DNA of 43,188 nt, taken from assembly GCA_900128565.1 (NCBI GenBank), contig LT635932.1, positions 1 to 43,188 of the forward strand, given 5' to 3'. The notes under the pieces are model-generated. The model was not told the origin of the DNA, searched no databases, and saw only the letters and a program-made list of their open reading frames with translations. Positions 1-29,594 of the stretch are shown here, in pieces. Source of the DNA: Stramenopiles sp. TOSAG23-6 (taxonomy: Eukaryota; Sar). Every line of letters begins with the position of its first letter. The stretch's first letter is position 1. A program made the translations under genes and the position numbers.

Positions 1-45
1 ATGGAATTAAAAGATGAAATGTCAGAGGCCGATTGTGTTGGGAGA
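1..45 (+). other. Exact 45-bp duplicate of 19680-19724; probable chimeric contig end
   Basis: Bases 1-45 are identical to 19680-19724 of the same gene and diverge at base 46. At 19680 this stretch is read as MELKDEMSEADCVGR. In the window's first exon the same bases would have to be read in a different frame to continue into the cysteine-rich coding sequence that follows; in the original frame a stop comes at once. That makes a real exon duplication unlikely and a chimeric read or assembly join likely. Confidence 0.75.
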
Positions 46-9000: not shown

Positions 9001-12000
9001 AAAAACAATGCTATACTCCAAGTGTATTCCTCGATATCACTGAAATACCAGACATGTCATCATTTGGAGGTAGTAAGGTAATTTACAATACGTATATTAA
9101 ACCCCAACATAAATGTAAATGTCCGCTAGGTTTTGGAGGTGAATTTTGTGAAGAGGAAGATTTACAATTTAAGTGTGCTTCTTTGTATAATAATTGCTAT
9201 GGACATGGAACTTGTAGGAGGGGTGTGTGTGACTGTCAAGCGAGTTTTGATACAAATACGCACTGTAGAACATGTTTGGATGGTTATATTATGAATGAAG
9301 ATAATGAATGTAAACCTATTGAAAATGTTACGAAAAATCGCTGCACAAATTTCTTACAAAATTCGGGCTGCTTCAATTTAAATGGAGCTCCGACCGGAGT
9401 AAGTCTATATACTTGCGGAAGTTGCAATGATCCAGAGACTTCAGAAACACAATGTAAACCACGTGATGATCTCTGTCTTGATGCCTATATAAAAGGTATT
9501 GGAAGCTGGGGCTCTGAAAAATGTACAAATAATAATAGCTGTATCTGTGGGGCAAAGGGCGATTGTGACGGAAATGGCGAAGACTGTGATGCAGCAGGTA
9601 TATGCACAACAAAAGTAGACGAGAATACCCATAAAAAAGAAATTGAATGCACATGTGAAGATGGTTTTGAAAAGGTAACATGCGACACCGATGAAAGCAA
9701 TACCAAAACTGGTGTTTGTGCATCTATAGATATGGGACTTACAGATGATAATTATTATTCACGATGTTATGACATAGATGAATGCAAATTAGATGATTCA
9801 AATCCATGTGGTATTGGTGGTGTTTGTACACAGACGGATGATGGAAAAAGACTAACGCGAAATGCATTTCATTGTACGTGTTTGGAAGGCTACAAAAAGC
9901 ACCCCACTTCTGAACCTCAATGTGTTTTAGAAGATCCTTGCAATCAAGGAGATACATGTCCTGAAGAAAGTAATCCGAATTCTTCATGTCTGGAGACTAC
10001 ATATGGTCATATTTGTCCTTGTAATGGAGGTTACGGTAAAGATTTGCCGATAGAAAAATGTATAAAATGTGCAAAAGGTAAATATAGTAACGCGAAAGCG
10101 CATGGCAATTATTTCTTTTTGGATAATCAGCGTCATGTTTTTCATAGCTGTGGTAGGAAGAGTGGGCCATCAGGACCAACTGCAGGAGAATGCAAGATGA
10201 AGTACACCACAGGTACAAAAAATAAGTGGGCAAATGATATACGTTTTTTTAATGTAAAAGAAGGCGTTCAAATATGGACAGTACCAGCCACTGCATATTA
10301 TGATATAACTGCCGTTGGTGCAGATGATCCTTGGTCAGTCTGTGATGAAGGTGAACCTAATTGTAATACAACTGCTGATAAATCAGGATGCCGGGAATGG
10401 TTTTATCCAACAAATAAGCAAACAGTTGAAAGAGGTTGCCGTTCTTCAAGTAGAGTTAAAGGGAAGGGAGGGAAAGTTAGTGGGAAATTTCGGCTATTGA
10501 AAGGGTCCCAAATATTAATGATTGTAGGACAAAAGGGCACAATTGGTACTAGCACTGACTCTACCAATCCCGGTTGTCGCCGTATAGGCCAGGTGTGTAG
10601 TTTTAGTTCTGGGGGCTCCGGGGGTTCATTTGTCGTCCAAAGTCCTGCTATAGTGACCATTACACATCCATTACCTGATGGTCAATTTATTCCTATTGAT
10701 ATTCCAGACACTTTTGATGTAGAAATAAAAGATTTCCCTTATCTCAAGTGCCCAAATAGTGTATTAGGTTGTGAAACAGGAGAATCAGAATGTTTAATAG
10801 TGTTGTCGGTCATAACTTTTTCATCAAATGAAAATGAAGAGAATAAAACAATTAGAGTAACTACATCCGGTGAAGGCTGGAAAGGCACAGTGAAGTTTAC
10901 ATGTACAACTCATCAAGTAAATAATGAAGAAGAGCAATTTACCATTACATCGTCAGTTGGAAATGTATTACTTGTTGCTGGTGGCGCAGGAGGTAGCGAA
11001 GCTAATTTAAAAAATCCAAATGATGGCCGAGAAGGCGGAAATGCTAGATTTAATGTTTTAACAAACCATACACAAGTAGACAATTTAAGTGGTCGCGGCG
11101 GTAGTGAGCGTTGGCTTCCTAGAACCATCACCCATATAAATTTTACAAGTGAGGGTAGTACTGTTGGTGGCAAACATTATACCTCTGGACTTGTTGCATT
11201 TGAGTGCGAAGATCCTTGTACAAATGAACTGAATGCAGCAGATTGTAGTAGCAGTAACAATAATTGTGAATGGGAGTCTACCATACAAATGTGTTTTTCG
11301 AAAGAAGCAAGAGGTTGTGGTTGTGACCCACTGCCGGAGGCATTTGTTGAAATTACCGATTGTGATACTCCAACAACATGTGAAAATCGCTGTACAAGTG
11401 AAGGACATTGCTGTAAAAGGTCTCTTGGTTTTATACCATGTGTTGAGTCGTGTGAATGGAGAGAAGAGAATAATAAAACTGAATTAGAATGTATCAATTA
11501 TTGTAACACTTCATTGAATGGGGAGCGCGAGCCTAATGACGATGTTGCAAGCTGTTCTTGTGAAATCCAAAGTATAGAAGAGTGTCGGAGAGGGTGTAAA
11601 CTAGCTGGATCCTTGGGAACAAATCAGTGTCGTCTTAATGATGTGTGTGATTCTCAGTCAATTGAATCCATTACTGTGACTAAAGGCGGACGTTGCCTCA
11701 AACCTCCAATAGCAATTGCTATTAAACCTACAGGCGTAATTGCAAAGTATGTTTACCGTGAACTAAGGGAGTTAGTAGTCACGGGTAAGATGGTGACTGA
11801 TATTAACTTTAAGTCAGGTGATATTTTATATATATATCGTCACATTGATCGCGAATACAAACCTCTAGGTCGCGTTGAGTCTATCACTAAAACAAATTAT
11901 TTAGATGTACTCACAAGAGACGAAGATGTTACTACATCAGAAACTAGAAATCATGTTTCATCATCAATTATATTTAGTAAAGTTTCTATTGAAACTGCAT

Positions 12001-15000
12001 CTGGAATGCTTAACAGTGACGACCTATTAGAAAATCTATTGAATGTTGTTGAAAATGAGGAGATATTTAATGGATCGGGTTCCAATGATAATACAGAAGA
12101 TGTGTCGTTGCAAGTTTATACGGATCGTCTTCGGGCAGCAAATGCTTCTTGTGATGGATCTGGTGGCGGAGGATTTTTGAGCTCTGGAAGTACATATTTA
12201 TTGAGTGAGAAAACTGGTGGGGCTTCATTTGTTAATCTAGGTAAAGGGAGCCACAAAGATGGTATTCATTATGGAATGGGTGGGTTTGGTGGTGGCGGTA
12301 GAGGTGGCACAAATTGTGGTGGCGGTGGCGGAGGAATGGTTGGTGGAGATTTTGGTGCAAGTGGAGAAGATGCAACCAACCCTAACGAAATCTCTTCTGA
12401 AAGAGGTGGGCAAGGTGGAACAAATTATGTTAGTCATGTTGCGGAAGAAAACAGTTCAACAGATACGTTGCGTACAGATACACTATATTATGGAAATGGT
12501 TATATTGAGATCAAATTCAGCGATCCGAACCACCCAATCAACAGTTCTTGTATAACTTGTCCTTCAGGTAAATTTTCTGATCCAAATAAATATGAAAGTG
12601 GGAGACCTACTGTAGACTGCAAAGCTCATACTATAATTGTTGATGATTGCAGTAGCCAACAGAAAATATTTATTGCTGGAACTTCAGAAACTGATTCAGA
12701 ATGTTTACTTTGTCCAGCCGGGAAGACATACACATCACATATTGAAGATGATGTTTGGGAAGGATGTGCTGTATGTGCTGTTGGAAAATGGAATCACTAT
12801 AACTATAGAGATCCTGAAAATTGTAGAATCAAAAATAACAAAGCTTCTTGTGAAAGTATGGTAAATTGTGAATGGAAGCGGGAAGACGCGTGTATGGTGG
12901 GAGATATAAATATAGCGTTCTTAAATGTGTGTGTACGTGAAACAGGTGATAGCATTCTCGATAGTATATCAAATGAAAATGATTGTGTTAATCTGGGTCA
13001 TATTTGGCATTTAAGTGGTTCACGTACTGATGGTTGCCCATGGACTAATGCTTGGGCTGAAGGAAATCCAATGTGTGTAGATGATTCATCCTGTGATAAT
13101 CATTCTCAGCAAGATTGTAATGGAACTTCCTATTGTCAGTGGAGTGACACAGACAATATATGTAGCTTACGTGTTGGTTTTTCTCCATGCAATACAACTT
13201 TGAACAGAGACGATTGCAATTCAAAGTCGCTCTGCAAGTGGGATGATGACAATTCAACACTTCCACGCTGTAAAGGAATAAATATACAGCATGCTTGTAG
13301 GAACTGTCCCATTGGTTTTTATATTTCAGACAGTACAAATGCTAGCAAGCACTCTTCAATAATAGAATGCATTGATTGCAGTACTGGTTATTATACTTCG
13401 GACCAAGTCAATTGTACCGCTTGTGTTCCAGGAAAGTACTCATACCATCGAGAAGTGGCTTGTACAAATTGTGAAAAAGGGNTTTTTTCTGCTAATCCTG
13501 GTTCTGCGCAATGTACCCCATGCATTCCTGGTCGTTACACTTCTGATGGAGGAAATTCTGAATGTCGGCTTTGTGAAAATGGCTCTCATACATATAAATT
13601 TAATAAACGGATAAAAGAGGTCTGTCAAAAATGTATTGAGGAAAATCCTGATGACCCTGAAGAGTGTCATTGTGAATACAAATTCAATAAACAGAAAAAA
13701 GAGGTCTGTCAAAAGTGCATTGAAGATAATCCTGATGACTCTAGTGAATGCCATTGTGAATATAATGCATCAAATATCATTTTTTTAAATACTATGTATC
13801 AATCTACAGAACTTTTTAATTTTACAGAAATTCTATTTGATGCATCTGCAGCAGATTATGCAACAGCAATTGAAAACTGTGATGATACAAAACCCGTTCT
13901 CCCCAAAATTGCAGATGGTAATGGTAATGATGAGTTATATTGTAGTCGTGGTGCCTTTGCATGCAGACAGTGTATTGTTGGCAAATACTCGCCCGAATCT
14001 ACTACAAAGTGTATAATATGCCAGGCGGGAAAGTATCACTCATCAAGTGGTCAAAGCGAATGTATTGATTGTCCGATGGGAACTTATAATGATAACCCCG
14101 ATCCTACTAGAGATGCTTCAGAAGTAGCCAAAGTAGAGGAACATATCAATATAACCTCATGTCATATTTGTAAAGGTGGAAAGTATCAACCTAATTTAGG
14201 AGTGGAACGAGAAATCGGTTGCATTTTATGTCCTGCGGGTACAATAAACGAGGATTGGACAAACACAGATTCTGATTATGCATCTGCTAGATCAAATGCA
14301 CTGGCAGAGGGTGGTTCAATTCAGGATTATTTAAACTTTGCTAGTATGTATGATAATGAAATAGATTGTGACTTGTGCCCGCATGGTAAATATTCTACAA
14401 CTATTGGAGCAATGACATTCGCAAATAATTGTATAGATTGTCCTCAAGGATCATGGAATAACGGATATTTGCAGTTACCATATGATGCAACCAAACAGAA
14501 AAAATCGGATTTCCACAATAAACTTGATGACTGCATTGTATGTGAAGCTGGGAAGTACCAAAATATTACTGGGGCTACCGAATGTAAAGTCTGCTTCCAT
14601 GGTAAATTTAATCCTACATCTTATACCAATGATCAAGATCATGTGGCATCTACAGCAAATAATGCCGTTGAAAGAGGCTTTGATTCTCTTGATGATTGTA
14701 AAAATTGTCCTGTTGGTTCACACATTAAAGATCACCAGACGCTTGCAGAAAACCACGACCAACTATCGGATTGTAAAACATGTGTACATGGTGAATGGAT
14801 GTCAACTGGAGGATATAATCAACCTTGTACAAAGTGCTATGCTGGAAGGTACCTTTCTAGTGAGTCATACCCAAGAAGTGCTGATGGCATCGAAGAGAAA
14901 AAACATAATTCGAGATGGGATTGTAAACTTTGCCCTGCAGGCAGGTTTAATGAAACTCCAGGTTCAAAATTTTCCAATCAATGCTTGTCATGTCCAGCAG

Positions 15001-18000
15001 GAAAGTTTATTCTTGAAAGCGAGAAATGTATAATTGATAATGGGGTAGATGTATTTGCTCAGCCAACATGTGTAGAATTGGAGGAGGATAAAAGCTGTTT
15101 CTGTAAAAGTGTTCAGGAGTGTGAAGTAATGAATAGTAATACAGGTGAACATTGTAGTAACTTTGACTCTGAAGAAGCATGTGTTGATTTATCAGTGGGT
15201 TTTCCAATGTATTGCAAGTGGGAGTATTTACCAAGGGCCGTTACACATGAAGTGGAAGGCAAAGTAGTATATTCTGAGTGCTCTAAGGAAGAGCAAATCT
15301 GGTTACCTGTACCAACAAATATGGATGAATGTTTAGGAACCTATTCATCACCACTAGCGGAGACTCGCAACCAAGCCTCTGATTGCATTGTTTGTCCTCC
15401 AGGGAAATATAGTGGTGAAGGCCATGGGGATATTTGCATCGATTGTGAAGCTGGTAAGTTTAATGGCAACACTGTTCCCAGGGCAATGTATCGATTACGA
15501 GAAAGCTGTGAAGCGTGTGCTGCTGGTCAATACGAACCCGAGACAGGACAGACAGAATGCACCAAGTGTGCCGCAGGTAAATATAATCCTTTGACTTATT
15601 CAGAAGACGAATCAGCATGTATATTATGTCCCGACGGGCGATATGCTTCATTCGAAGGTAACACTAGTTTTGAAAGGGAAGATAATTTATCATGTAGATT
15701 ATGCCCAATTGGATATTATATTGGAGGAAAAGGTCAAAGTGAGTGTGTTCCAAAACCCACTGTCCATGGATGGTCAGGTTGGCTCAATGGTTTGTTCAAC
15801 AAAAAAGTCCGATTAACATTCAAAGTAAAACATTTACTGCCACACGAAGCTATGGAAAATCGTAATGATGGTGGCACTCCAGAGGAAGGTACATATTACT
15901 GGACAATGTTGCCGTATATTAAATTTACTACAAATGAGTGCAACTCATCAGATACTTTTGATGATGCTACTGATGGTTTACATGGCGAGCTACAATATTC
16001 TAGTTCAACTGAAGCTTACATTGATCTACAACCAATAGAAAAATGTGTACCATCTGTGGGTATTGACAAGGGAGTATTTTTTTCAAGAAATGTTACAAAA
16101 GAAAATTGTGAGAAAAGTTTCAAATTTGGATGTATTGTTCAAGGTCAAAATATATCAGATAAGGACACATGTTTAGAAAGATTAACTGATGAAAATGGTG
16201 TATTGGTTTTAAGGAAAAGATCTGGTGATAAGAACGAATGTTTATCTAAAGGTCTGCTATGGGTACCAAAATTCAGTGGTGAAAAAACATGTCCATCTCC
16301 TGCTGAATGGAAGAAGATTTTCGGTGTTTGGGGGCACCATCCTAGAAACGATCACAATTTGTGCTGGACTAATTACTACCCAACAACGAGATGGAACGAT
16401 GTTCGGTACGCTTTCCCTCAAGGTCAAAGTCTGCATGGGATTGGACCGTACCAGAAGTTGCCCAATTATCATTGGAATGCTAATATTTGTAGACTTGATG
16501 AGCCACCAGAAGATGTGACAGGTGATGATTTAGCTGCATATTTAGTAGCCAAGTGTACTAAATGTTTTAATGATGTGGTAACTGATGATATAAATATGGG
16601 AGGAGAACTTGTTATGAAAGATAATAGATGTGAATTAACATCCCCACCTTATTGGACTACTCCTTTTGTATATGATCGAGTAGCTTTACAAATAGTCTCA
16701 GTAGGTGACATAATCGTTGCTAAAGCACCTGAAGCATATGGGCTTGATATGAACTTGGAAAATGTCACAGAATATATGTTTTATTATAGATATGAAACAC
16801 CTGGAATAGTTGGTAAGTGTATGGTAAGAGATTCAAATGAAAATCTTGTCGACATTGAATCACAAAATGTATGTGTAGGCCCTAATGCAATTATCAATGA
16901 GGATTGGGATACAAAAGATGCTTGTGAGGAAAATGATGGTATATGGCATCTTATGAACACAAAAGAGGCTGGGTGTCCTTGGTGTATAATTGACAATGAA
17001 GACATACACAACAAATCTGTGTGTGTACAAGCTCCTAATTTTACAAGTCTTTTAAAAGATAGGAGTGAAAGTAACTGCGCAACTAATATCAATGGAAAAA
17101 AAGGTATTTGGAAGAAACCGAGTGATGCTTGCCGATGGTGTTTATTAGATAATGGATTTAATATTATGTCTGGTTCAGGTCAACATTGTGTAAAGCTTGA
17201 TTTTTCTAAAGTTATACCTAATCGTACTATATCCAATTGCTCCACTGGTGACGAGGTTGGACTATGGTATATTAATGGCGAAAATCCTCTTAATGTATGT
17301 GTAAAGTCTGACTCAAAAGCAATTGAAGATGCAGATGATAAAAGTTGCGCAACAGGAGAATTTGCTGGGTACTATTTAAAACGTGAGAAAGGTCTTGTAA
17401 CATCCCAATGTGTCGATCGAACACGAGTGGACCAATCTGGTGGAATGCCACCAAATCCAGCAGCTGTCAATTTGTCTGAAACTGATTGTGCAACATATTC
17501 AGGGTATGATTGGATAGATGCTGGTAGAGGTATCATTGATTGTAAAACAAGAGCATCATGGCAAGAAATCAAGTACATTGACTGGCAATTATCACAAGTT
17601 ATTGTTGATGGGAAAGTCGTCCCCAATGTAGGAGGTGTTCAAATTATTGATGGGCTTTTAAATCAACAGGGTATTGAAGTGAAAGTTGTAGCCATAAATG
17701 GAATGAGTGGTGACAATTTGGATGAATTGCTCGCTACTAAATCTAGTCACACGCTTGAGGTGCTTATGGAAGTTGTACCCCCTTCTCCGCCAACATGGAG
17801 TAAGAAAAATCCTGTTGTGAAACACCGCAATGAAGAAATTCATTTCATAGACTTGGACTTGACATTTAAATGTCCTTTTGATGGTGGTCGCGATATTAGA
17901 AGATTTACATTTAACATCAATGGCGAGGATGTGATCCCCCCCCCTCCACCACTGGAAGTACCATGTAAAAAGGACTCAGAACTAAATTACATTCTCAAAA

Positions 18001-21000
18001 CTACGCAATCCGGGAAATTTTCACTAAAGATGAGAGCAACTAATGGCCCATTACCATCAGATTGGGGTGCATATAGCACAGTACAACAAGTAGAGGTATG
18101 TGGTAAAGGTACATTCTACAATAGCAATACAGATTCTTGTGATGATTGCCCACAAGGAAGATATAATCAAACTGGGTTACAACAACGAGAGTGTATAGAA
18201 TGTGAAGCTGGTTTCTATTGTCCTGCAACCCCTGAAGGTAGAATTACACCTGAACCATGTGGAGGTATACCAGGGAGTTATTGTGAGGCTGGAAGCCATG
18301 CCCTTGGTTCATGTCCTCGTGGCTTTTATTGTACCAAGGGAAAATTCAAGCACTCTTGTGATCCACCATATGATCGCGCATGTATGGTGGGTGGTGTAAA
18401 TATTGCAATGAAAAATATATGTGTAAATCTATCAGGTTCTGGTATTCTTGATGATATCTCAAACCAAGAGGACTGTGAAGAAGCTTCTGGAATTTGGCAT
18501 ACCCGTGGTTCAGGTGCTAGTGGTTGCTCATGGAATAAAGCTTGGGTTAAAGTAGAAGATGAGGATTCTCAGATAAGTTGTAATGACTCTGATACATCTA
18601 GGTGTAAAGCTTTATATTGCCCAAGTAATTCTTCTCGCCCAGAAGTTTGTACAGCTGGGTCATATTGCTACACATCATCTACTAAAGTCTCTTGTGGAGG
18701 TAACGGTAATCATTGTCCTCAAGGGTCATGGGAAATATCATCGTGTCCTATTGGACATTACTGTCCAACGTCTTCAAAAATGTATCCATGTGAATGGATT
18801 CCAGCTGGAACTGGAAATGATCGATGTCTACCATTCTGCGATTCCGTTGAACAAAAATTCAGATTGATAAGTCCGGATATTGGGTGGATTTGTGAAGGTG
18901 CAAACCGAGTCCCAAAGAAATGTGATGCAGGGTTCTACTGTGATGGTGGCGATAGAAAGTATTCATGTGATTATCCCTTTTCTGGTTGTATGATTGGAAA
19001 CGAATATCATCCGGAATATACAGATGATTCAACTTGTGAAGGCAAGGGTGGTGAATATTCCGCTTTTGAATACGATGAAAGTGATAAAGGAATACAAAAT
19101 AAGTATTTTAAGGCTGGTAATGAAGAAAGTATTGAATTGGCATTTTATTGTGAAAAGGGATCATCAGAACCCAAAATTTGCCCCGAAGGCTATTTTTGTT
19201 CAACATCTGAAAAAAAGGAAAGATGTTCTGCTAGTGGTTCATATTGCCAGGCTGGTAGAAAATCAGCTGAAATATGTAGAGCAGGATATTTTTGCCCAGA
19301 TTCAAAGACATCCATTAGTTGTGAAGATTCAGGAGATAAAAGGTGGTTGTGTAATGCTGGATCAGCTGTAAGAACCCCATGTCCACCAGGTTATACATGC
19401 CCAAATGCAAAAACAAAAGAAGCTTGTCCACAAGGTTTTTACTGTCCAGGAGGCGTTGCACCTAAATCGTGTGTATATTCTGATGATATTGAGGACGAAA
19501 ATATCATTGAAGAGTTTGCATTTTACTGTCCACCAGGAGCATCAAAGCCTCAGAAGTGCCCTCGGGGTAATTATTGTACGCTGGGTTATAAATTACACTC
19601 TTGTCATTCATACAACGTTGATACATGTATGGTATCGGGTGTAAATATAGCAGCACAAGATATATGTGTATCTGAGAGCATGGAATTAAAAGATGAAATG
19701 TCAGAGGCCGATTGTGTTGGGAGATATACATGGCATAAAAAAAATATTGGTCAGAGTGGATGTATGTGGTGTGGAGTAGGTTCTGTTGACATTCATGATA
19801 AGAGTGTATGTGTAAGTATTGATGGTAAAAATATTCTTAAGCGAGCAGATCGTAATGCATGTGAAGATCCATCAGACGGACAAGATAAAGGTGTTTGGCA
19901 CGTTGCTGGAGGTGAATGTCTGTGGCCATCCTGGTATATTGCAAAAATGCCTGAAGAAGCTAGATATTGTCCTCCTGGATCAAAAACATACAAAATATGC
20001 TCAAAAGGGCATTATTGCGAAGATGCAAATGCAGAAGTTGCATGCCAAGCAGGTAATTTAGACCAACGTGCATATTACTGTAAAAAGGGTTCTTTTTCTA
20101 TGAAACTATGTCCTGCGGGGAGTTTTTGTCCATCAAATATTGAAAAATATTCATGTGTATGGAACGAAGCTGAAGGTGCTGAAAATGCAATTGAGCTGAA
20201 AAATCCAGATAAGCGGTGGTTTTGTAAAGAAGGTTCGGAAATACCAATTCCCTGTCCGGGTGGAAAAGTGTGTGGTGAATTTGCATCTTCACAGGAAGAC
20301 TGCCCAAGTGGGTTCTATTGTCCGGGTGGGGAAGCTCCGATTAGTTGTGCAATAAATACCAACAACAAGGCATTTTACTGCCCCAAAGGATCTTCAGAAA
20401 AAACGTTGTGCCCTAAAGGCTATTATTGTGAATCAGGAACAAACAAATATCCATGTGATGCACCTTTTCATCATACATGTATGGTTGCAGGGGTGAATAT
20501 AAATCCATTAGACATATGCGTTGATGCGAAGGGAGAATACTTAATGACTGAAATTTCAGAAAAGAAATTATGTTCTGGTGTTTGGCATACTAAATGGAGT
20601 GGGGCAAAGGGTTGTACTTGGGCTTGGTGTATTGTTGCAGGCCAAAATATTCATGATAGGGACGTTTGTGTTAATGATGATCATTCGAATATCTTAGAAA
20701 GAAATGAAGCTACATGTACAGATGTCATTGATGGTGTATTTGGAAGTTGGCATAATATTGGCGATACTTGTAAATATAATTATATAACATCTTGGTCGGA
20801 ATCAATAGATTCAACAAATCCTATTGGAGAATGTAACAATCCAGCTTATTCGACTCCAAATGAATGCCTAGTATATGGTGGGATATGGACTGCTCTGCCA
20901 AATTCTCACGAGTGGACAAAAGGAAAAGGAATTGATCTATATTATTATTGCCCGGAGGGTTCAAGTACATACGAGCCTTGTGCGTTTGGTCATTATTGTC

Positions 21001-24000
21001 CAACCGCAAGCATACAAATTCCTTGTTTGAGTGAGATTGGTATTTCATGCCCACCAGGAGTTAATAAACCACTTTTATGCGAAGCGGGGTATCATTGTAA
21101 AACACCAATGCATAGAGCATCATGTGAATGGGATGCCAATTTAACAGGTGAGGAAATGGCAGAGCAAGAAAACACATTGAAAACACCAGACGATGCGTGG
21201 TTTTGTCCCCCAGGCACTAAAATTATAGCCAATTCTGAGTGTCCAAGTGCTTATTATTGTACAGAAGGGATGTACAAACATCGATGTGATGCGCCATTTG
21301 AAACGTGTTCCATTGATGAAAGAAAGACTGAGTCAGAATGCATTTGGGGTTTATTCAATGATTATACAATTGAAGCTACTGATTCAAAATATGATGGTTG
21401 TACTTCTACAAGTGATACTACAGCATGTGATCATTTTTGTAATGTATGGACATTGATTGGTTCATTAGATGATTGTAAAGTTAAATGTGGTAATTTAACA
21501 GATTGTATCGGCTTTGACATGACAACTGATGTGTGTATTGTTGCCAACGAAGATATTACACATAAACATAAATGTATTGCTACTGATGGCCAAAGTTTTA
21601 TTGAAGTCAATACGAAAGTTGATTGTGAAAACGGTTCTGGAATCTGGCATGAACGAGGTGGAGGAAAAGAAGGATGCAAGTACTGCTTTGTTGGGGGCGA
21701 AGATATCTCAAAAATTGATGTATGTCTAAGTGCGGATGGAAATACTATTTTAGGCCGCGATGAAACGGATTGTGCTGGTACTTGGAATCTTAGTGGAACT
21801 TGTCAATCACCATCTTGGATAACAAATACGTTTTGTATTGGTAAGATGGCAGACTGCTCTCTAGCGGAACCAAATATACTTTACAATGGTTACACTCCAT
21901 ATACTAAGGTAGAAGAGTATACCCAAGAAGATCCAGGTAGAAAGTTTAGCGTGTGTGACAATTGTGGTAATGATTGTCAAGCATGGGACCCTACCCCTAA
22001 ATGCAGCATCGAAGAGTGTAAATCTAGGTGTAATAATGATCCATATTGTTATGGTATCCAAACAACACCTATAGATGTGTGCATGGTTGGAGATGTTGAC
22101 ATATCACAAGAAAGTGTTTGTGTTCAGGGTGGTGTTTCAATATTGAATGATGACGACATTGACGAGATTGCTTGTGAAGAAGGTGGTAATGTGTGGCATC
22201 GAACAGGTAGTGGTGAGAATGGATGCTTGTGGTGCATTGTTGATGGTATAGATATTCACGATGAGGACATATGTGTCAGCATCGATGGAAAATCTTTTCT
22301 CTCACGAAAAGACCCGGGTGATTGCGAAAATCCAGAGTCAGATGATGCAGTTGCTGGTATATGGCATTCCGAAGGGGGAAAATGTAACTGGCCTTCATGG
22401 TATTCTACTTTTGATTGTAAAGGAGTATACAAAACTTGTAAATTAGGAGCTTCAGGTAGTAATAAGAGTGTTATTTCGTATACTCGTCGAATAGAAAGTA
22501 ACATTGGTAAGTGGCTGAAACCAGAAGAGGGTAATCCAGATTTTGATAGAAATAAAGCACACTACTGTCCAGCGAAATCCAAAGTCCCCCAACGTTGTGC
22601 CCAAAACCATTTTTGCCCCGATTCCAAATTCCAGTTTGAATGTGCAGCGGAAGGTAATCCAGGCGGTATTTTCTGCCAAGAAGGCTCATTTGAGGCTAGA
22701 CCGTGTGACTCAGGAAGTTTTTGTCCCGATTCAAACACCAAAACAAGTTGTGTATGGGATACACAAAACCCTAAAAATAATGATGCAGAGAATCTTGTAG
22801 ATGCAGAACACGAATGGTACTGCCCACCAAGCTCCAATAAACCTATTCCGTGTCCTGGTGGTCATCAATGTGAAGGCGCAAAACAAATTATTCCTTGTCC
22901 TGTAGGAAGCTACTGCAGTGAAGGAAAATCAGCAATAGAGTGTGTAAATTCTGATAGTTCAACCGGGGGTTTTTACTGTCCATTGATGAGCGAGGAAGAA
23001 CAATTTTGTCATGCTGGATTCTATTGTAAAACTCCGACTGAGAAATTCAGTTGTGATTTCCCGTATATTCAAGGTACATGTGTGAAGGACACTAGATATT
23101 GGCCAACTTCAGGAAATCTCCCAGAAGCAAGTGACTTGAATCATTGCAAATCTCTTAATGGAAATTGGCAATATAAAACTGACGAAAATATTGCTAGATG
23201 TATGCTTCCTAATGGCGCCGATGTTGTCCAAAATAGAAACACCCCAACTCTTTGTGAATCTCCTGGTAGTGATGGATTAGTAGGTGTATGGACTCGTGCA
23301 ACATTAGCACGATATTGTCCTCAAGGTTCAAAAACACCAAATGTTAAATGTGAAGCCGGTTTCTATTGCCCAAAGTCAGATACAAAGATTCAATGTACAG
23401 ATTCTACAAGTTATTGTCCCGAAGGATCTTACGAACAAAAAAAATGCCCAGTCGGACATGTTTGTCCAAAGGGTTGTCTACGCAAGTTTACAAACAACGA
23501 GAGAATTCCCGATAGATTGTGCCCGGATCCAAATTCTAAGGGTACTTGTATATTAGATATACCTGGAGGAATTTATCTTTTAGATTTATCAATAACTGTA
23601 TCGTCTGATTGCACCAGTGGAGATGGAAATTCAGAAAATATTTGGCTTGGTTCAACCCTGGCAATATCGTGTATGTATTCCTCGGGTGGGTTATCACAAC
23701 AATATTTAGATGCAATTATAATGTCTATGTTCAATGACAATATTGATAATTATAATAGGTTGTCACTTCAAAATGGTATTTTAGGACATGCTATAAAAAG
23801 AGATGGCTCTGTCAAATGTTCTGACAAGAGAGAAGACGACAGTGGAAATAAATATACACAACGTCTTATTATCCTTGATGATCAACAATGGCATTGTGAT
23901 GATGGTCGGTATCTTATTGAATACAAGTATCGTCGTTGGTCATGCTTAGATGTACTAAATGCAAACGAGAAGAAAAAAGAAAAAGGTGCCGTGGGCAGAA

Positions 24001-27000
24001 ACGTCTTTACTTTAGACGAATGTCAAAATTTGATAGAATTTGAAGATCGTCAATGGTATTGTCCAAAGGGGAGTCAAATACCATTGCTTTGCAGTAATGG
24101 ATTTCGATGTCCAAATGCGAGCTCTGTAAGTAGATGTGAAGCGGGTAATTATTGCGCCGAAGGTCTATTTCCATCCACATGCATATATGATAAGGATTTA
24201 CCTGATGCTTCACTGCAACCACCTACTGCTTGGTTTTGTGAAGCAGGAACAGGTGATATTCTTGAAAGAGATTCCGATTATGCTTGTGTATATAATATCT
24301 TTCATCCAGAATCTAAAAGGGGTGGGCTAGCTGAGTTTACTGCTAAAATCGATATTACTGGCTATAATGTATGTGTACAGAATGGCACACTAAAAACCGT
24401 ATTAGGCAATGTTTTCACAAAAGAAGAATGTGATGGAGTTACAAATGGATACTGGCACGAGAAATATACCGGTGTAAGTGGATGCCAGGAACCATTTGTA
24501 TGGGAGCAACCCCAAAAACTAGTTCGCATCTGCCCTGCTGGGTACTATTGTTCTAAGGGGAAAGTTAAAATATCATGTGAATATCCATACTATGATAAGT
24601 TTTTCAAGGCATGTGATATTAATGGAATTATAGATTATAATATTACAGACTCCACTTCCTGTGTGAATCAAAATGGGGTTCTCAAAGAAATTGAAGAGAG
24701 ACGTGGTAGACATGAACCCGGGAATCCAAGACTTGGTCGTTGTTTTGTCGGTAATCGTGATGTTACAGAGGAAAGACCTGTACCGAGCATGTGTACTGCT
24801 GACCCTGATGGCATTGGTGGTGTTTGGGTTGCAGAGGAATTAACCAGATATTGTCCACCTGGATCAAGCACACCCGGAATTTGTGCAGCTGGATTCTATT
24901 GTCCTAAACCTATCGTAAAACTGCCTTGTAAAAATGATGGAACCTTTTGTCCTGCTGGTACAATGACACCTGGGATTTGCCCCGAAGGATATTATTGTGA
25001 ATACGCAAGACAGAAAATGAGTTGTCAATGGGATGATGATGTCTCTGATTCAAATTTGATAGACAATACTAGATCTTGGTATTGTGTTGAAAAATCCCAA
25101 TCACCTGAGCCTTGTCCTGCTGCACATTTTTGTAAGGAAGCAATAAGTTATGAGGGATGCCCTATAGGCTACTTTTGTGAAGAGGGCAGATTTAAGAAGA
25201 CATGTAACCCGATATTAGAGGAAGATGATTCAGTAACGTGCGTAGAAGGAAGCACAAAAGCAGATGAAGTTTGCCCGGAAGATTTTTTTTGTTTGGGTGA
25301 AAAATGCAAGCCTCAGTCTTTCTATTGTATGGCTGGAAGTGGTGAAAAAACATTATGCCCGGCCGGATATTATTGTGAAGAAGGCAAAAACAAATATTCG
25401 TGTGATTATCCATTTTATGGGTGTATGATTGGTGTAAATGGAGAAAACTCCATACATTTAGGCAAAGATACATGTGGTGATGCTGTCGACGAAGCGAAAC
25501 TTTTGAATGATATAAGCTATTGTGAAGTCACAGATATTCTGCTAGGCAATACTACTTATGCCCACATGGGTCGAAGTCCAAATTCTTGTACAATTGCTGG
25601 TATATGGGATACAAGTGGTAAAATACCAATATGCATTGAAGATTCTGCAACTCCGTCAAATTCTACAATGAAACTTTTGTCAGTACGGACAGAAGCTGAT
25701 TGTGTAGTTTCAGGAACTTGGCAAGAGCGTACTGTAGTATCTCCGCGTTCAAAAGAAGACTGTGAGCGCATTCTTTGGTATGATTACACTAAAGAAATCC
25801 GAAAAGCTACAATACAGTTTCCATTCAAACCTATATTGAAACCAAGTGGTATATGGTACGAGGCACGGCTAACTAGAGAAGAATGCGAAATGCCAGTAAT
25901 TCAAGTACCTGAAAATTGGAGCTATAAAGATATTAGAGGGTATTGGTCTGATAATTTACAAGGGCCGGGTGATCCCATTGTAGCACCAGGTGGATTGTAT
26001 TATGGTCGAGCTTATCAATGTAATGCAGGTACAGGATATCCAATACCATGTGACGTTGGATATGAGTGTCCTGACTCAACAACCAAAAATGAATGTGTAG
26101 GTCAGGGTAGATATTGTGGTGTACGAGGTGAAGAGGGATCAAAAATCGCTGGCTGGAGAAAGTCGGTTCTTTGTCCTGAGGGGTTCTATTGTACTACAAC
26201 AAAAATGAAAGTAAAATGTCAAGGTATTGAATTCTGTGCTGCTGGGCAATTTAGACCATTAGAATGCCCAACTTGGAACAATGTTAAATTAGTTACAGGT
26301 GATGCTATAGGTGGTGATCGGAGTAGATGCGAATGCCCTGTATCTTTTTATTCTTTTATTGGTGCTGATACACCATATTGGTCTGGTAGTTGGGATGAGG
26401 ACTGCGCACGCGAGGCAAAAAAAATTAAAGATGCTGGCCCTGATTCTAGAATAAGTAGTGCACAGCCATGTCCGTCAACTAGAACTTTTCAGCTTAAGTA
26501 CACAGATAAGTATTTTAATGATACTTACTTTGAGTATGCAGATGATTGTAATGGGCGAAGACCCAAAGATGCGACATTTGGTCTTCGTACTACACAAAAG
26601 TTGTTTAATTGCAATGATACAGGGGCTGCAGTGACTGGGCTATCGATTAATGTAGAGGCTCTTATAGGAACCGATACATGGGCGCAAAAGTGTTCACCGT
26701 GTCCTCAAGGAGCCCGCTGTGATAAATATGGTCTTTCATTACAAACTGCTGCACCAGATAGAAAGATTCATCTCGTACCATGTTTGGGTAATCCATATAC
26801 TTTGGGATCATGCGAAGAACCACTTCCAGGTATCGAAAAGGGCGAACAAATCAATGGATACTGGCAAGACCCAGTACTACTGCGTCAACATCCAGACTGG
26901 TTTTGCCCAAAGGAAGTCACTGATGATTGCAATGATAATCCATGCGTTGAATGTAAATGTGCACCAGATCCGTTGGCACAAAAGGCCTATCGTGATTGTA

Positions 27001-29594
27001 CACTAAGAAGCTGTTTGGCTCCTGATAACTGCGAAGCTGGACCCTTACGTGGAAATCTCACAAGCAATTGGCAAAATTGTAGAGAAGGCCATGAAGGTAT
27101 TCTATGTGGAATTTGTCAACTTGGATATGTTATGTCCGCAGATGGGGTTCATTGTACAAAATGCGAAGCACAATCTAAAAGTGCTAAAGGTAACACTTCG
27201 GGTATGATGCTGTTGTGTATAATATTTGGTATTTTTGCATACAGTACAATGCTTTGTATTATGACAAGAAAAGCGGATCAAGGTTATTATAATGAAAAAT
27301 ATATGAAACGCCTTACAAGTCTTCAATCTCGAGTAAGATTGGCAGCAAAACGAGCATCTTTATCGCATATTTTATCGATGGATGCAAAGACACATACAAA
27401 AGGACACTTACATATCGAAGACATGAGCCGTGAAAATATATTCGCTGAAAAGAGTCAAGCCAAACTACAAGAAAAGATGATGCTTATGGAAGCAAAAGCA
27501 CTTGTGAGGAAGAGGACCATGAGACAACTTGAAATAGAAAACATGGTCTCCTCAAAGAAAGGAACCAAAAAACTTATGCATGAATTGCACAGAAAGAATA
27601 AAATGGAGTTCGTGCTTAAGAAAGATTTAAAAGTTCGTAAAAGGTTGCATCACGTAAGTAATAAAGCTGCAGTAAAAGCCCAGCAATGGGCAGAGTTTGG
27701 GGCTACAATCAAACTCCTTATGAGCTACTTTCAAGTGCTATCTCAAATGCAACATTCTGGGGGTTCCGAATATCCACCAAATTTTATTGCATTTTGTGCA
27801 CAATTTGATATCATTAATTTTGATATCATGAAGTTTGCTACATTCATTGAACCTTGTGCATTCTCTACCGATTTTGCTACTTCATTTTATGCATACATGT
27901 GTGCGGTACCACTCGTATTGTTATGTACATTCACGGCTTTAAAGACTGCCCATACGATTAAACGTTTTGGTCAAGATCGAGTTAAATTTAATAGACTTAG
28001 CGCAGAAATGTATGCGTCAAGAATACTTATATTAGTAATATTCTGTATATATCCCGCTTTATCCGTTCGATGTTTTCGCGTGTATAACTGCTTTGAAGTT
28101 AATGGATCCAATTATTTAGTAGCAGATTTATCTGTCAGTTGTGATGACTCATCGTATAAAATGCTAACCATGGTGGCATTGTTATGCATATTTTTATACG
28201 TCATTGGCATTCCATTATTTGGTTTTCTTTGGCTATATCCAAAACGAGTATGGCTTGTAGCGGAAGATGAGATGGGCAACGAAATGCACGATGCGTTATT
28301 ACACCATAGAACATTAAGAGAAATGCATCATAAATTGACAAATGAGTATGGTTCGCTTTTTATGAGTTATCATCATAATTTATGGTGGTTTGAATTTTCA
28401 GAATTATTTCGGAAGGCAATGATGACAGGAATGCTCTCAGCTCTCCCCGGAGGTATATTTCGCAATTCCATTGCGGTTGTATTAGCTGTATTATTTTTCT
28501 GTTTTTGTGCTATTCTCAGTCCGTTTCGAATACCTTCTGACTTTCATTTACAACTGATCTTATTATTCGCGGTGACTATGACATTTTATTGTAATCTGTT
28601 GATTAGTGCAAATGCTTTTAAAAAGCACGAACATTTCTTACTTATGGGAGAGTTTCTTATTTGGGGAAATATTGTGATATTTTCATTTTCATTTTTTACA
28701 ATAGCTAGAATGTTACCAAAGTTTAGACATTTCGGCGATCACATTGAAAAGATGCTTAGTGAGGATGAAGATATCCTCGATTTGAATGAAAAATCTCAGT
28801 TGAATGAGCTATTTGCTCAGCGACATGAGCGAGCTAAATTGATTCACAAAAAACAGAAAGTAGAAGTAGTCAAAAGTTTTAAAGTTGCACCAGTCAATTC
28901 AGAAAATGAACACGAAGAGAGAGTTCAAGGTTTGACGGAAAAGTTTCTATACAAATTGAGGAGGAGAAAGACGAGAGAGCTTGCTGCGAAAAAAGCAAAA
29001 AAAGCCGCCAAGAAAAAAGCTAAGAAAGCTGCAAAGAAGGCTAAAAAGAAAGCCAGAAAAGAAGCAATGAGTTCTGGCTTTGTAGTTTCTGAAACTTCTG
29101 GTAATGACAAAAAAGCTAAAAAGGAAGCCAAGAAAAAGGCAAAGGCTATCAAGAAGGCCAAGAAAGCAGCAATGAGTTCTGGTGCTGAAGTTTCTGAAAT
29201 TACTGGCGATGATGTTATTAAAAAAACAAAAAAAGATAAAAAAGCTAAAAAGGCTGCAAAGAAACTGAAGGAAACTGAACTTCTCAATAACACGGACTCA
29301 CTCACCAAAGTTGGAGTAGCTATTGGTAATGATGGTGTGGTCAATAGTGAAGAGAAAATTCAAGAATCAAAGAAGCCAAAGAAAGCAAAGAAAGAGAAGA
29401 AGGCTAAAAAAGAGAAGAAGGCTAAAAAAGAGAAGAAGGCTAAAAAAGAAAAGAAAGCCGCGAAAGAGGCTAAGAAAGAAACTCCTGTGATTGATTTAAA
29501 TGTCCCTCCACCTCAGATTGATAAACGCGAAGTTTCCGAGTTTGAAAATGAATACTCAGAATCTGATGTAGAAAATCTTGAAAAGTGGGTGTGA
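46..29594 (+). CDS. Giant cysteine-rich multi-domain surface receptor with C-terminal 7-TM region (5' partial)
   Basis: One reading frame stays open from about 347 to the TGA at 29592-29594. The protein continues upstream across one short intron to an exon at about 46-234, so it has at least 9,700 residues and lacks its start. The ectodomain is a mosaic: long tracts of CxxCPxGxY-type repeats (GCC2/GCC3, ephrin-receptor-like), PAN-like pairs, EGF domains, an ALK/LTK-like glycine-rich domain, a fibronectin III-like domain and a repeated module I do not recognise. An EGF-like segment (CREGHEGILCGICQLGY, near 27080) leads into the first membrane helix at about 27200. About six more helices end near 28715, and a lysine-rich tail follows. 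This layout matches giant GCC2/GCC3 proteins with TRP- or GPCR-like membrane regions known from stramenopiles and algae. An adhesion, sensing or cell-surface role is inference. An ATG at 813 is inside the protein: coding sequence clearly continues upstream of it. Confidence 0.9.
235..346 (+). other. Short intron in the giant gene
   Basis: The exon frame runs ...CQNCPGG and then into low-complexity T-rich sequence. Downstream the giant frame resumes at GKSDCIEC. A donor GTACGTTTTCAT at 235 and an acceptor GACAG ending at 346 keep the frame (phase 2), with a CTAAC branch-like motif at 337-341 just upstream. An alternative canonical pair is GTGAGT at 231 with TCAG ending at 357. A third junction, with a repeated TAC on both sides (exon ending at 238, restarting at 336), would give the best match to the repeat pattern (GGEY then TNDSGKSDC) but is not GT-AG. 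That an intron is present is solid; its exact ends are not. Confidence 0.7.
2400..2935 (+). repeat. Tandem pair of PAN/apple-like domains in the giant protein
   Basis: Two consecutive units of about 80 residues share the order YACxxxxI, TRF(E/D)CQxxCDE, C(S/F)GISWN, CKLK and CDPDEGYF(F/L)QK, with matching cysteines. The C...C...C.GISW...C pattern resembles PAN/apple domains, which bind proteins or sugars. The similarity of the two copies suggests a local tandem duplication. Confidence 0.6.
4887..4945 (+). other. EGF-like start (SPCQNGGVC) interrupted by unrelated sequence
   Basis: The translation CDSSPCQNGGVCIDN is the classical first half of an EGF domain. The expected closing CxCxxGxxGxxC does not follow directly; a region of several hundred residues with few cysteines comes instead. 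It may be a truncated EGF or one carrying a large insertion. Confidence 0.5.
6280..6840 (+). other. PAN/WSC-like cysteine segments in the giant protein
   Basis: Three successive segments have a DC....C......C.Y.S/W....C arrangement: LNDCKDLCSAETDCEYFSYY, SLDSCKTACMSHNECNYISF and HNCRQKCVTLGEEGYYF followed by CSCS. This is the usual PAN- or WSC-like spacing of small carbohydrate- or protein-binding domains. The family call rests on pattern only. Confidence 0.4.
7400..8440 (+). other. Two possible farnesoic-acid-methyltransferase-like (PF12248-type) beta domains
   Basis: Two stretches have the pattern of alternating strands ending in a W-x-x-W/G-x-(L/I)-x-(I/V)-G motif: NYWVRWRDDKLTIGS near 7630 and KLWISWENGIIRVGK near 8350. 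Each is preceded by a segment on the theme of F.V...(E/D)....L. This resembles the domain named after insect farnesoic acid O-methyltransferase, which is often found in extracellular lectin-like settings. The assignment is tentative. Confidence 0.35.
9100..9930 (+). other. EGF and calcium-binding EGF domains in the giant protein
   Basis: CKCPLGFGGEFCEEE closes one EGF near 9117. NCYGHGTCRRGVCDC begins another near 9195. DIDECKLDDSNPCGIGGVC with FHCTCLEGYKK (about 9774-9897) is a full calcium-binding EGF signature, with the D-x-D-E-C start and cysteine order of the family. Such domains rigidify extracellular rods in a calcium-dependent way. Confidence 0.75.
10105..12522 (+). other. ALK/LTK-like glycine-rich domain split by insertions
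   Basis: The first part carries the landmarks of the metazoan ALK/LTK glycine-rich domain in order: GPSGPTAGEC, GVQIWTVPAT, YYDITAVGA, LLKGSQILMIVGQKG, QVC and GGSGGSF (10150-10640). GNVLLVAGGAGG follows near 10960. The final part, GGFGGGGRGG, CGGGGGGMVGG, ERGGQGGTNYVS and GNGYIEIKF, occupies about 12280-12520. Between them are a beta-rich insertion (about 10650-10950) and a cysteine-rich insertion (about 11200-12130). In animals this domain binds cytokine ligands. No kinase is present here. Confidence 0.7.
12545..15770 (+). other. Second GCC2/GCC3 repeat block of the giant protein
   Basis: Typical units include CPSGKFSDPNKYES near 12558, CVPGKYSYHREVACTNC near 13420, CIPGRYTSDGGNSEC near 13520 and CPAGRFNETPGSKF near 14933. 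Short C...DC....C-x-W units (near 12820, 13090 and 13190) are interspersed. A single N lies at 13482 inside one repeat and does not change the frame. Confidence 0.8.
13593..13760 (+). repeat. Tandem 84-bp duplication (2 copies, 28 residues each)
   Basis: Copy 1 is 13593-13676 and copy 2 is 13677-13760. Each encodes YKFNK..KEVCQKCIE.NPDD..ECHCE, with only a few differences. The near identity points to a recent in-frame duplication. Confidence 0.85.
17775..18095 (+). other. Fibronectin type III-like domain
   Basis: The segment begins PPSPPTWSKKNP, continues with a strand pattern ending in DIRRFTFNING, and closes with FSLKMRATNGPLPSDWGAYS. This is the usual fibronectin III order: a proline-rich start, an alternating middle and an (A/V)-x-N-x-x-G-x-S-x-(W/Y) end. 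It links the second GCC2/GCC3 block to the third repeat region. The run of C at 17937-17945 encodes a polyproline loop. Confidence 0.6.
18110..26340 (+). other. Third cysteine-repeat region (CxxGxYCP units alternating with the WH module)
   Basis: Units such as CPRGFYCTKGKFKHSC near 18315, CRAGYFCPDSKTSISC near 19276, CPAGSFCPSNIEKYSC near 20110 and CPEGYYCEYARQKMSC near 24979 repeat at about 20-40 residues. They often follow an R/F-x-YCPPGS lead-in. They look like a diverged form of the GCC2/GCC3 repeat specialised in this half of the protein. Confidence 0.75.
27200..28720 (+). other. C-terminal multi-pass membrane region of the giant protein (about 7 helices)
   Basis: Hydrophobic segments lie at about 27202-27264, 27876-27940, 28014-28076, 28161-28240, 28468-28520, 28548-28612 and 28650-28715. 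Helix 1 is followed by a long basic stretch of about 200 residues. The segment CFEVNGSNYLVADLSVSC between helices 3 and 4, and GIPLFGFLWLYPKRVW after helix 4, fit the conserved C-terminal domain seen in many protist GCC2/GCC3 proteins, which some annotations call TRP-like. Channel or receptor function is not proven by the sequence. Confidence 0.75.
28960..29480 (+). repeat. Lysine-rich tail with AKKEKK repeats
   Basis: The cytoplasmic tail is dominated by K, A and E in KKAKK patterns. A near-perfect 18-bp unit encoding KEKKAK is repeated about four times at about 29389-29460. A longer two-copy repeat contains KKA(K/M)xx(A)MSSG followed by VSE(T/I)(S/T)G at about 29060 and 29165. Such tails are probably disordered and may bind acidic lipids, nucleic acid or cytoskeleton. 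Confidence 0.8.

What the first reader, a model, noticed from the sequence alone, without database searches (positions are those of the whole stretch)
12886..24860. Unrecognised repeated domain (CMV...GxWH...GCxWC), at least 14 copies, often in pairs
A 50-60 residue unit with fixed landmarks (C-M/I/F-V-x-G-x-D/N-I, VCV, GxxIL, DC, GxWH, GCxW) is repeated through half of the giant protein. It often forms doublets in which the last cysteine of one unit starts the next. It is longer than, and different from, the GCC2/GCC3 repeats around it. I know no named domain with this pattern. It could be a new extracellular disulphide-rich fold.
Basis: partly seen in the sequence, partly recalled or inferred. 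Interest (0 to 1): 0.75.

Follow-up and report, generated by a model that had tools for sequence, protein, structure and literature searches.

The report
Undescribed cysteine-rich repeat in giant protein
A giant membrane protein of an unidentified single-celled eukaryote carries 14 copies of a small cysteine-rich module that matched no named domain in the libraries searched, and related genes in the same genome carry longer versions of it.

Summary
The repeat is real. A profile finds 14 copies in the 9,593-residue frame at 813-29594, spanning nt 12891-24488; ten form five back-to-back doublets. No significant match was found in Pfam, NCBIfam, PDB sequences, or by fold in PDB and BFVD. AlphaFold2 predicts a compact unit of short hairpins, helix and strand (pLDDT 83.1, pTM 0.58). 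A new fold is possible but not shown.

The unit is the short form of a wider family. Paralogous giant genes on contigs C405, C399, C404 and C88 carry short or long forms, the long with an extra cysteine-rich segment; stretches of eight other contigs gave none.

The C-terminal membrane core is shared by seven genes. Three of seven match Pfam TRP (PF06011) in one register, one of them above the cut-off (29.6 vs 28.5 bits); the window's own does not.

Best reading: a disulphide-stabilised contact module in the ectodomain of a giant, possibly TRP-like membrane protein. Its function is inferred; no relative outside this genome was found, within limited searches; the host lineage is unidentified.

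The parts
813..29594 (+). Open frame of the giant protein (9,593 aa from the ATG at 813). The true gene starts further upstream: the frame is open before 813 and more GCC-type sequence lies in another frame near the contig start.
12891..13046 (+). unit 1 (aa 4027-4078), type A, single
   Evidence: 70.0 bits
16131..16295 (+). unit 2 (aa 5107-5161), diverged single
   Evidence: 18.1 bits; 38.7 bits
16818..16982 (+). unit 3 (aa 5336-5390), type A, first of doublet 1
   Evidence: 56.6 bits
16983..17141 (+). unit 4 (aa 5391-5443), type B, second of doublet 1
   Evidence: 51.9 bits
18381..18536 (+). unit 5 (aa 5857-5908), type A, single
   Evidence: 72.8 bits
19626..19769 (+). unit 6 (aa 6272-6319), type A, first of doublet 2
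   Evidence: 59.5 bits
19770..19928 (+). unit 7 (aa 6320-6372), type B, second of doublet 2
   Evidence: 54.1 bits
20478..20627 (+). unit 8 (aa 6556-6605), type A, first of doublet 3
   Evidence: 61.1 bits
20628..20780 (+). unit 9 (aa 6606-6656), type B, second of doublet 3
   Evidence: 49.5 bits
21534..21683 (+). unit 10 (aa 6908-6957), type A, first of doublet 4
   Evidence: 64.0 bits
21684..21809 (+). unit 11 (aa 6958-6999), type B, second of doublet 4
   Evidence: 41.9 bits
22080..22232 (+). unit 12 (aa 7090-7140), type A, first of doublet 5 (the doublet modelled by AlphaFold2)
   Evidence: 64.8 bits; model
22233..22394 (+). unit 13 (aa 7141-7194), type B, second of doublet 5
   Evidence: 57.5 bits; model
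24342..24488 (+). unit 14 (aa 7844-7892), diverged single, first cysteine missing
   Evidence: 21.7 bits; 40.8 bits
12801..15800 (+). stretch with 12 Ephrin_rec_like (GCC2/GCC3-type) matches, containing unit 1
   Evidence: PF07699 E 2.9e-34, 12 stretches
26853..28832 (+). C-terminal cysteine-rich stretch and multi-pass membrane core shared with paralogues
   Evidence: seven hydrophobic segments; alignment A6; PF06011 TRP matches in 3 of 7 members, not the window's own; sub-threshold DUF7630 at its start

Best explanation
The repeat is a disulphide-stabilised extracellular module, absent from the domain libraries searched, in the ectodomain of a giant multi-pass membrane protein. A typical short-form unit has four cysteines and is predicted to fold as two small hairpins (around CMVxGxxI and VCVxxxGxxIL), a short helix carrying the third cysteine, and a strand with the GxWH motif. 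Units stand singly or as A-B doublets among GCC2/GCC3-type repeats, so the ectodomain would be a long cysteine-rich rod with many similar modules. I infer that the modules make repeated, avid contacts with a partner cell, matrix or neighbouring copies of the protein, and that the C-terminal core, distantly TRP-like through its paralogues, turns that contact or pull into a signal such as ion entry. Shown: repeat, family, subtypes, predicted fold. Inferred: surface location, disulphide pairing, binding, gating.
For: 14 copies far above shuffled controls. Copies in paralogous giant genes: the first profile, before iteration, scores 12-40 bits at six places in C405 and 13.3 bits at one in C88; after iteration 6 in C405, 3 in C88, 1 in C399. 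The long-tolerant profile finds 45 copies on five contigs and none in three shuffles (not fully converged). Short and long forms: hhalign probability 81.1%, E 1.2e-5 over 31 columns. Models: short doublet pLDDT 83.1, pTM 0.58; long form 81.2, 0.60. 81 N-glycosylation sequons in residues 1-8800, 7.3% Cys in residues 1-8700, seven hydrophobic segments near the C-terminus. Membrane core shared by seven genes; 3 of 7 match PF06011 in a consistent register, C101 at 29.6 bits against a cut-off of 28.5; the window core matches C101 at 47% identity over 224 residues, E 9e-70.
Against: The window's own membrane core and those of C404, C399 and C405 do not match PF06011. pTM 0.58-0.60 is moderate, and the alignments (17 and 18 rows) come only from this genome. 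No signal peptide was seen, because the gene start is not identified. No relative with known biology was found: none at E <= 1 among 283 candidates for the doublet region, none at E <= 0.001 among 1757 candidates for the core. hhalign joins short and long forms only over their second half. The position of the units in the rod is not strictly fixed: 17 of 27 CDxP[FY] motifs open a significant module, and in the window protein only 2 of 14 units follow such a motif directly. Stretches of eight of the twelve other contigs fetched hold no significant copy.
Confidence: 0.45

Rival explanations
1. The unit is a far-diverged member of a known cysteine-rich family (PSI/plexin repeat, Paramecium surface antigen repeat or thyroglobulin type-1), too diverged for the searches used.
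For: Long-form members give weak Pfam hits: Paramecium_SA in 4 of 18 (best E 0.014), PSI in 1 (0.46), Trefoil in 1 (0.29). The long-form profile touches a trypanosome variant surface glycoprotein chain, 2jwg_A, at E 0.22. The motif [TSNDE]xxxCx(2-12)[GC]xW occurs 29 times in the window protein against a mean of 5.55 and a maximum of 16 in 200 shuffles, and its Cys/Trp spacing resembles such repeats (recalled). GCxWC..V recalls the CWCV of thyroglobulin type-1 (recalled; not tested by profile-profile comparison).
Against: No hit for the 12 short units except an unrelated one. Longer stretches of C404, C88 and C399 show no such family at E up to 1. The best single Pfam hit of the 18 long forms is a zinc finger (zf-CCCH_DUS3L, E 0.0019, 1 of 18), which shows how little such weak hits mean. 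No PDB fold match for either model.
Confidence: 0.3
2. The units are only spacers that stiffen the ectodomain, with no binding role of their own; their layout follows from duplication.
For: A and B subtypes fit duplication as pairs. A 423-nt exact internal repeat in C404, which covers a long-form module, shows recent duplication or an assembly effect.
Against: Conserved positions go beyond cysteines (Ile and Trp 12 of 12, Val at column 3 11 of 12, His 10 of 12). Form and number differ between paralogues, which fits varied function slightly better than a plain spacer; a weak argument.
Confidence: 0.35
3. The repeat count is an assembly artefact.
For: The first 45 nt of the window recur exactly at 19680, inside unit 6, and the first 55 nt of C399 recur inside that contig.
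Against: Units differ from each other (mean identity 33-41%) and lie in one open frame of 28.8 kb. With 30-base seeds the only other exact repeat found inside the frame is 41 nt in the Lys-rich tail. The paralogue C405 carries units too.
Confidence: 0.03

Closest known systems
GCC2/GCC3-type (Ephrin_rec_like, PF07699) repeats
   Same: Cysteine-rich repeat of the same protein, interspersed with the unit.
   Different: CxxC..C..C spacing, no GxWH, no VCV; profile-profile probability 2.9%.
Apicomplexan cysteine repeat modular proteins (CRMP)
   Same: Large proteins with cysteine-rich, ephrin-receptor-like and EGF-like parts and a multi-pass core; the two T. gondii CRMPs have 9 membrane segments (PMC9815656, passages read).
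   Different: No sequence comparison was made; seven hydrophobic segments counted in the window protein; the unit is not mentioned in the passages read.
Tetrahymena mating-type proteins MTA/MTB
   Same: [quoted passage not shown] used in recognition between cells (PMC10901506, passages read).
   Different: Not compared by sequence; five membrane helices against seven hydrophobic segments here.
TRP family PF06011
   Same: 3 of 7 paralogue cores match in a consistent register, one above the cut-off.
   Different: The window's own core does not match; a giant cysteine-rich ectodomain is not typical of that family as I recall it.
Paramecium surface antigens (PF01508)
   Same: Cysteine periodicity in large surface proteins (PMC9788069, passages read); weak hits in 4 of 18 long forms.
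   Different: Best E 0.014, none in 12 short units or longer stretches; classical Paramecium antigens are GPI-anchored.

Membership tests
Ephrin_rec_like / GCC2-GCC3 (PF07699) | Significant match of the unit to the profile | tested here: not met
   hmmscan of 12 units: no hit; unit profile against eight GCC-type repeats of the window: probability 2.9%
Paramecium surface antigen domain (PF01508) | Profile match of the module | tested here: not met
   0 of 12 short units; 4 of 18 long forms, best E 0.014, not significant; none in longer stretches
PSI / plexin repeat (PF01437) | Profile match of the module | tested here: not met
   0 of 12 short units; 1 of 18 long forms at E 0.46
Thyroglobulin type-1 repeat | Profile match; six cysteines in three pairs (recalled) | tested here: not met
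   No Pfam hit at E up to 10; four cysteines in 12 of 14 units. Profile-profile comparison not done
TRP-like membrane proteins (PF06011), for the C-terminal core | Profile match over the curated cut-off | tested here: inconclusive
   C101 member 29.6 bits vs cut-off 28.5; C386 25.1; C19 19.8; window, C405, C399 and C404 members none
TRP-like membrane proteins (PF06011), for the C-terminal core | Cation channel activity | not testable with these tools
   needs electrophysiology
Cysteine repeat modular proteins (CRMP) | Conserved core of two EGF-like domains and membrane segments homologous to CRMPs | not tested
   No CRMP sequence was compared; architecture only, from passages of PMC9815656

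The most novel reading that the evidence does not exclude
A lineage-specific disulphide fold, built from a helix-strand element that ends in a GxW or CxW strand, expanded into short and long modules along giant ectodomains of thousands of residues fused to TRP-like cores: a family of giant tethered sensor channels in an unstudied protist.
Probability: 0.25. Interest if true: 0.7.

Novelty: new variant of a known kind. Interest (0 to 1): 0.45.

Why it matters
Large cysteine-rich multi-pass proteins serve in contact between cells or with hosts in some protists (T. gondii CRMPs, Tetrahymena mating-type proteins; passages), and what their repeats bind is largely unknown as far as I recall. A module of about 50 residues with a clear profile is small enough to express and solve, and gives a handle on one such family. 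A TRP-like core, if confirmed, would join a giant ectodomain directly to a channel-type membrane part.

Tried and rejected
Searches for relatives outside the genome led nowhere. A 958-aa piece found 27 proteins among 1721 candidates, but the unit profile scores above 3 bits in none of them (the half-unit profile gives 3.1 bits in one, not significant); the top hits read are rich in GCC-type repeats. A search restricted to two doublets found none at E <= 1 among 283 candidates of about 330-1050 aa. The C-terminal core found none at E <= 0.001 among 1757 candidates of 2200-7000 aa. Other lengths were not searched, and the tool needs shared 5-residue words, so absence is not shown. IMG/VR and GTDB scans gave no confirmed relative. 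PHROGs gave only weak unrelated hits.

The host lineage was not settled: the 18S search did not complete. An ankyrin-HDAC neighbour and interrupted frames in the paralogue suggest a eukaryote. A PDB search with a neighbouring coiled-coil protein gave nothing.

I first took the unit as an isolated domain; the half-unit profile and the long forms changed that. Mixing short and long forms in one alignment (A3) set short units against the inserted segment, so the long forms were modelled alone (A4). PDB sequence searches with the membrane core gave only weak hits that look irrelevant. Six paper searches were seen as listings; their terms name families and architectures, not this unit, so they do not show that it is absent from print.
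Full report
WHAT WAS CHECKED. The window holds one open frame of 9,593 residues from the ATG at 813 to 29594. It lies on contig C390 of an 8.03-Mb assembly in 408 contigs. A neighbour with histone deacetylase and ankyrin domains and interrupted frames in the paralogue C405 point to a eukaryote. Its lineage was not identified, because the 18S search did not complete.

THE REPEAT. Twelve units picked by motif give an alignment with invariant C, I, C, C, W, C. A profile from them scores 41.9-72.8 bits at the 12 places, 21.7 and 18.1 bits at two more and at most 3.4 bits elsewhere in the protein; the best score in 50 shuffled copies is 2.5 bits; leave-one-out scores are 36.0-72.0 bits. Before iteration the profile also scores 12-40 bits at six places in C405 and 13.3 bits at one in C88. 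Iterated over the window protein and the fetched stretches it settles on 24 copies with E below 0.001: 14 in the window protein, 6 in C405, 3 in C88, 1 in C399. Ten of the 14 window copies form five doublets. First and second members are separate subtypes: mean identity 0.378 within A, 0.406 within B, 0.329 between, label-permutation p 0.0016.

THE WIDER FAMILY. A profile from the second half of the unit also hits C404. Reading C404, C88 and C399 shows a long form with an extra cysteine-rich segment (roughly GCxG..C........C.....CxW) between VC[VI] and GxxLL (alignment A4). A profile that tolerates it finds 45 copies (C399 18, window 11, C404 7, C88 5, C405 4) and none in three shuffles. That profile was still gaining copies after four rounds (34, 37, 39, 45) and misses three of the 14 window copies, so its counts are rough. 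Short and long forms are related by profile-profile comparison (probability 81.1%, E 1.2e-5) over 31 columns of the second half. All counts cover the window and 23 fetched stretches, 209,629 bases, not the whole genome. No significant copy was found in the stretches from C19, C101, C400, C377, C386, C24, C323 and C176.

LAYOUT. In the window protein and the fetched frames a motif CDxP[FY] occurs 27 times, each time with a cysteine within the next 8 residues. 17 of the 27 are followed directly by a module that is significant or 66 (C404 5 of 5, C88 3 of 3, C399 6 of 7, window 2 of 6, C405 1 of 6); the other ten look degenerate or cut off by eye. In the window protein only 2 of 14 units follow the motif directly. 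So the motif marks a preferred place in the long-form genes rather than a strict rule. A short motif [TSNDE]xxxCx(2-12)[GC]xW occurs 29 times in the window protein against a mean of 5.55 and a maximum of 16 in 200 shuffles; some of the 29 lie in GCC-type repeats.

KNOWN FAMILIES. Pfam, NCBIfam, PHROGs and PDB sequences give no convincing match to the module. For the 18 long forms the lowest Pfam E is 0.0019 (zf-CCCH_DUS3L, 1 of 18), and the family hit most often is the Paramecium surface antigen domain (4 of 18, best 0.014); neither appears when longer stretches are scanned at E up to 1. The long-form profile touches three PDB chains at E 0.22-0.45, among them a trypanosome variant surface glycoprotein. 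GCC2/GCC3-type repeats are different.

THE HOST PROTEIN. The C-terminal part has seven hydrophobic segments behind a cysteine-rich stretch with a sub-threshold DUF7630 match. It aligns with six paralogues; C405 is 54% identical over 632 residues. Pfam TRP (PF06011) matches 3 of 7 members: C101 29.6 bits (cut-off 28.5), C386 25.1, C19 19.8; the window, C405, C399 and C404 members do not match. In the alignment the matches of C19 and C386 start within one column of each other in register, and the ends of all three agree within five. A distant TRP-like core is therefore plausible but rests on relatives, not on the window protein itself.

MECHANISM. Shown: repeat, subtypes, paralogues, predicted compact fold. 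Inferred: surface location, disulphides, binding, and gating of a channel-like core. The architecture resembles CRMPs (PMC9815656, passages) and ciliate mating-type proteins (PMC10901506, passages), both used in contact with other cells, but no sequence comparison with either was made.

VERDICT. A real cysteine-rich domain family, unnamed in the libraries searched here, in a known kind of giant membrane protein. Whether it is described in print was not tested: the six paper searches were seen as listings, in an open-access library, with terms that do not name the unit.

Noticed in passing
window 1-45 and 19680-19724: The first 45 nt of the contig are identical to a stretch inside unit 6, followed by sequence in another frame; the first 55 nt of C399 likewise recur inside that contig. 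Contig ends appear to fall in shared repeats.
   Followed up: partly
window, about 235-335 (by eye): Possible intron upstream of the ATG at 813: GCC-type sequence switches from one frame to another, so the ATG at 813 is probably not the gene start.
   Followed up: no
L014 7865-8287 and the matching stretch of contig C404 3,762 nt further on (L015): An exact 423-nt internal repeat that covers a long-form module: recent duplication or assembly effect.
   Followed up: partly
contigs C404, C19, C399, C101, C405: Further giant frames of 4,515-7,594 residues in the same small assembly; all five contigs carry a core related to the window's.
   Followed up: partly
window 28988-29458: Lysine-rich C-terminal tail with short tandem repeats, of unknown role.
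   Followed up: no
window 8169-8504: Best stretch of a match to Farnesoic acid O-methyltransferase-type domain (PF12248, 36.9 bits, above its cut-off of 24.2) in the N-terminal half.
   Followed up: no
window 10449-10628: Sub-threshold match to the ALK/LTK glycine-rich domain (20.2 bits, cut-off 24.5).
   Followed up: no
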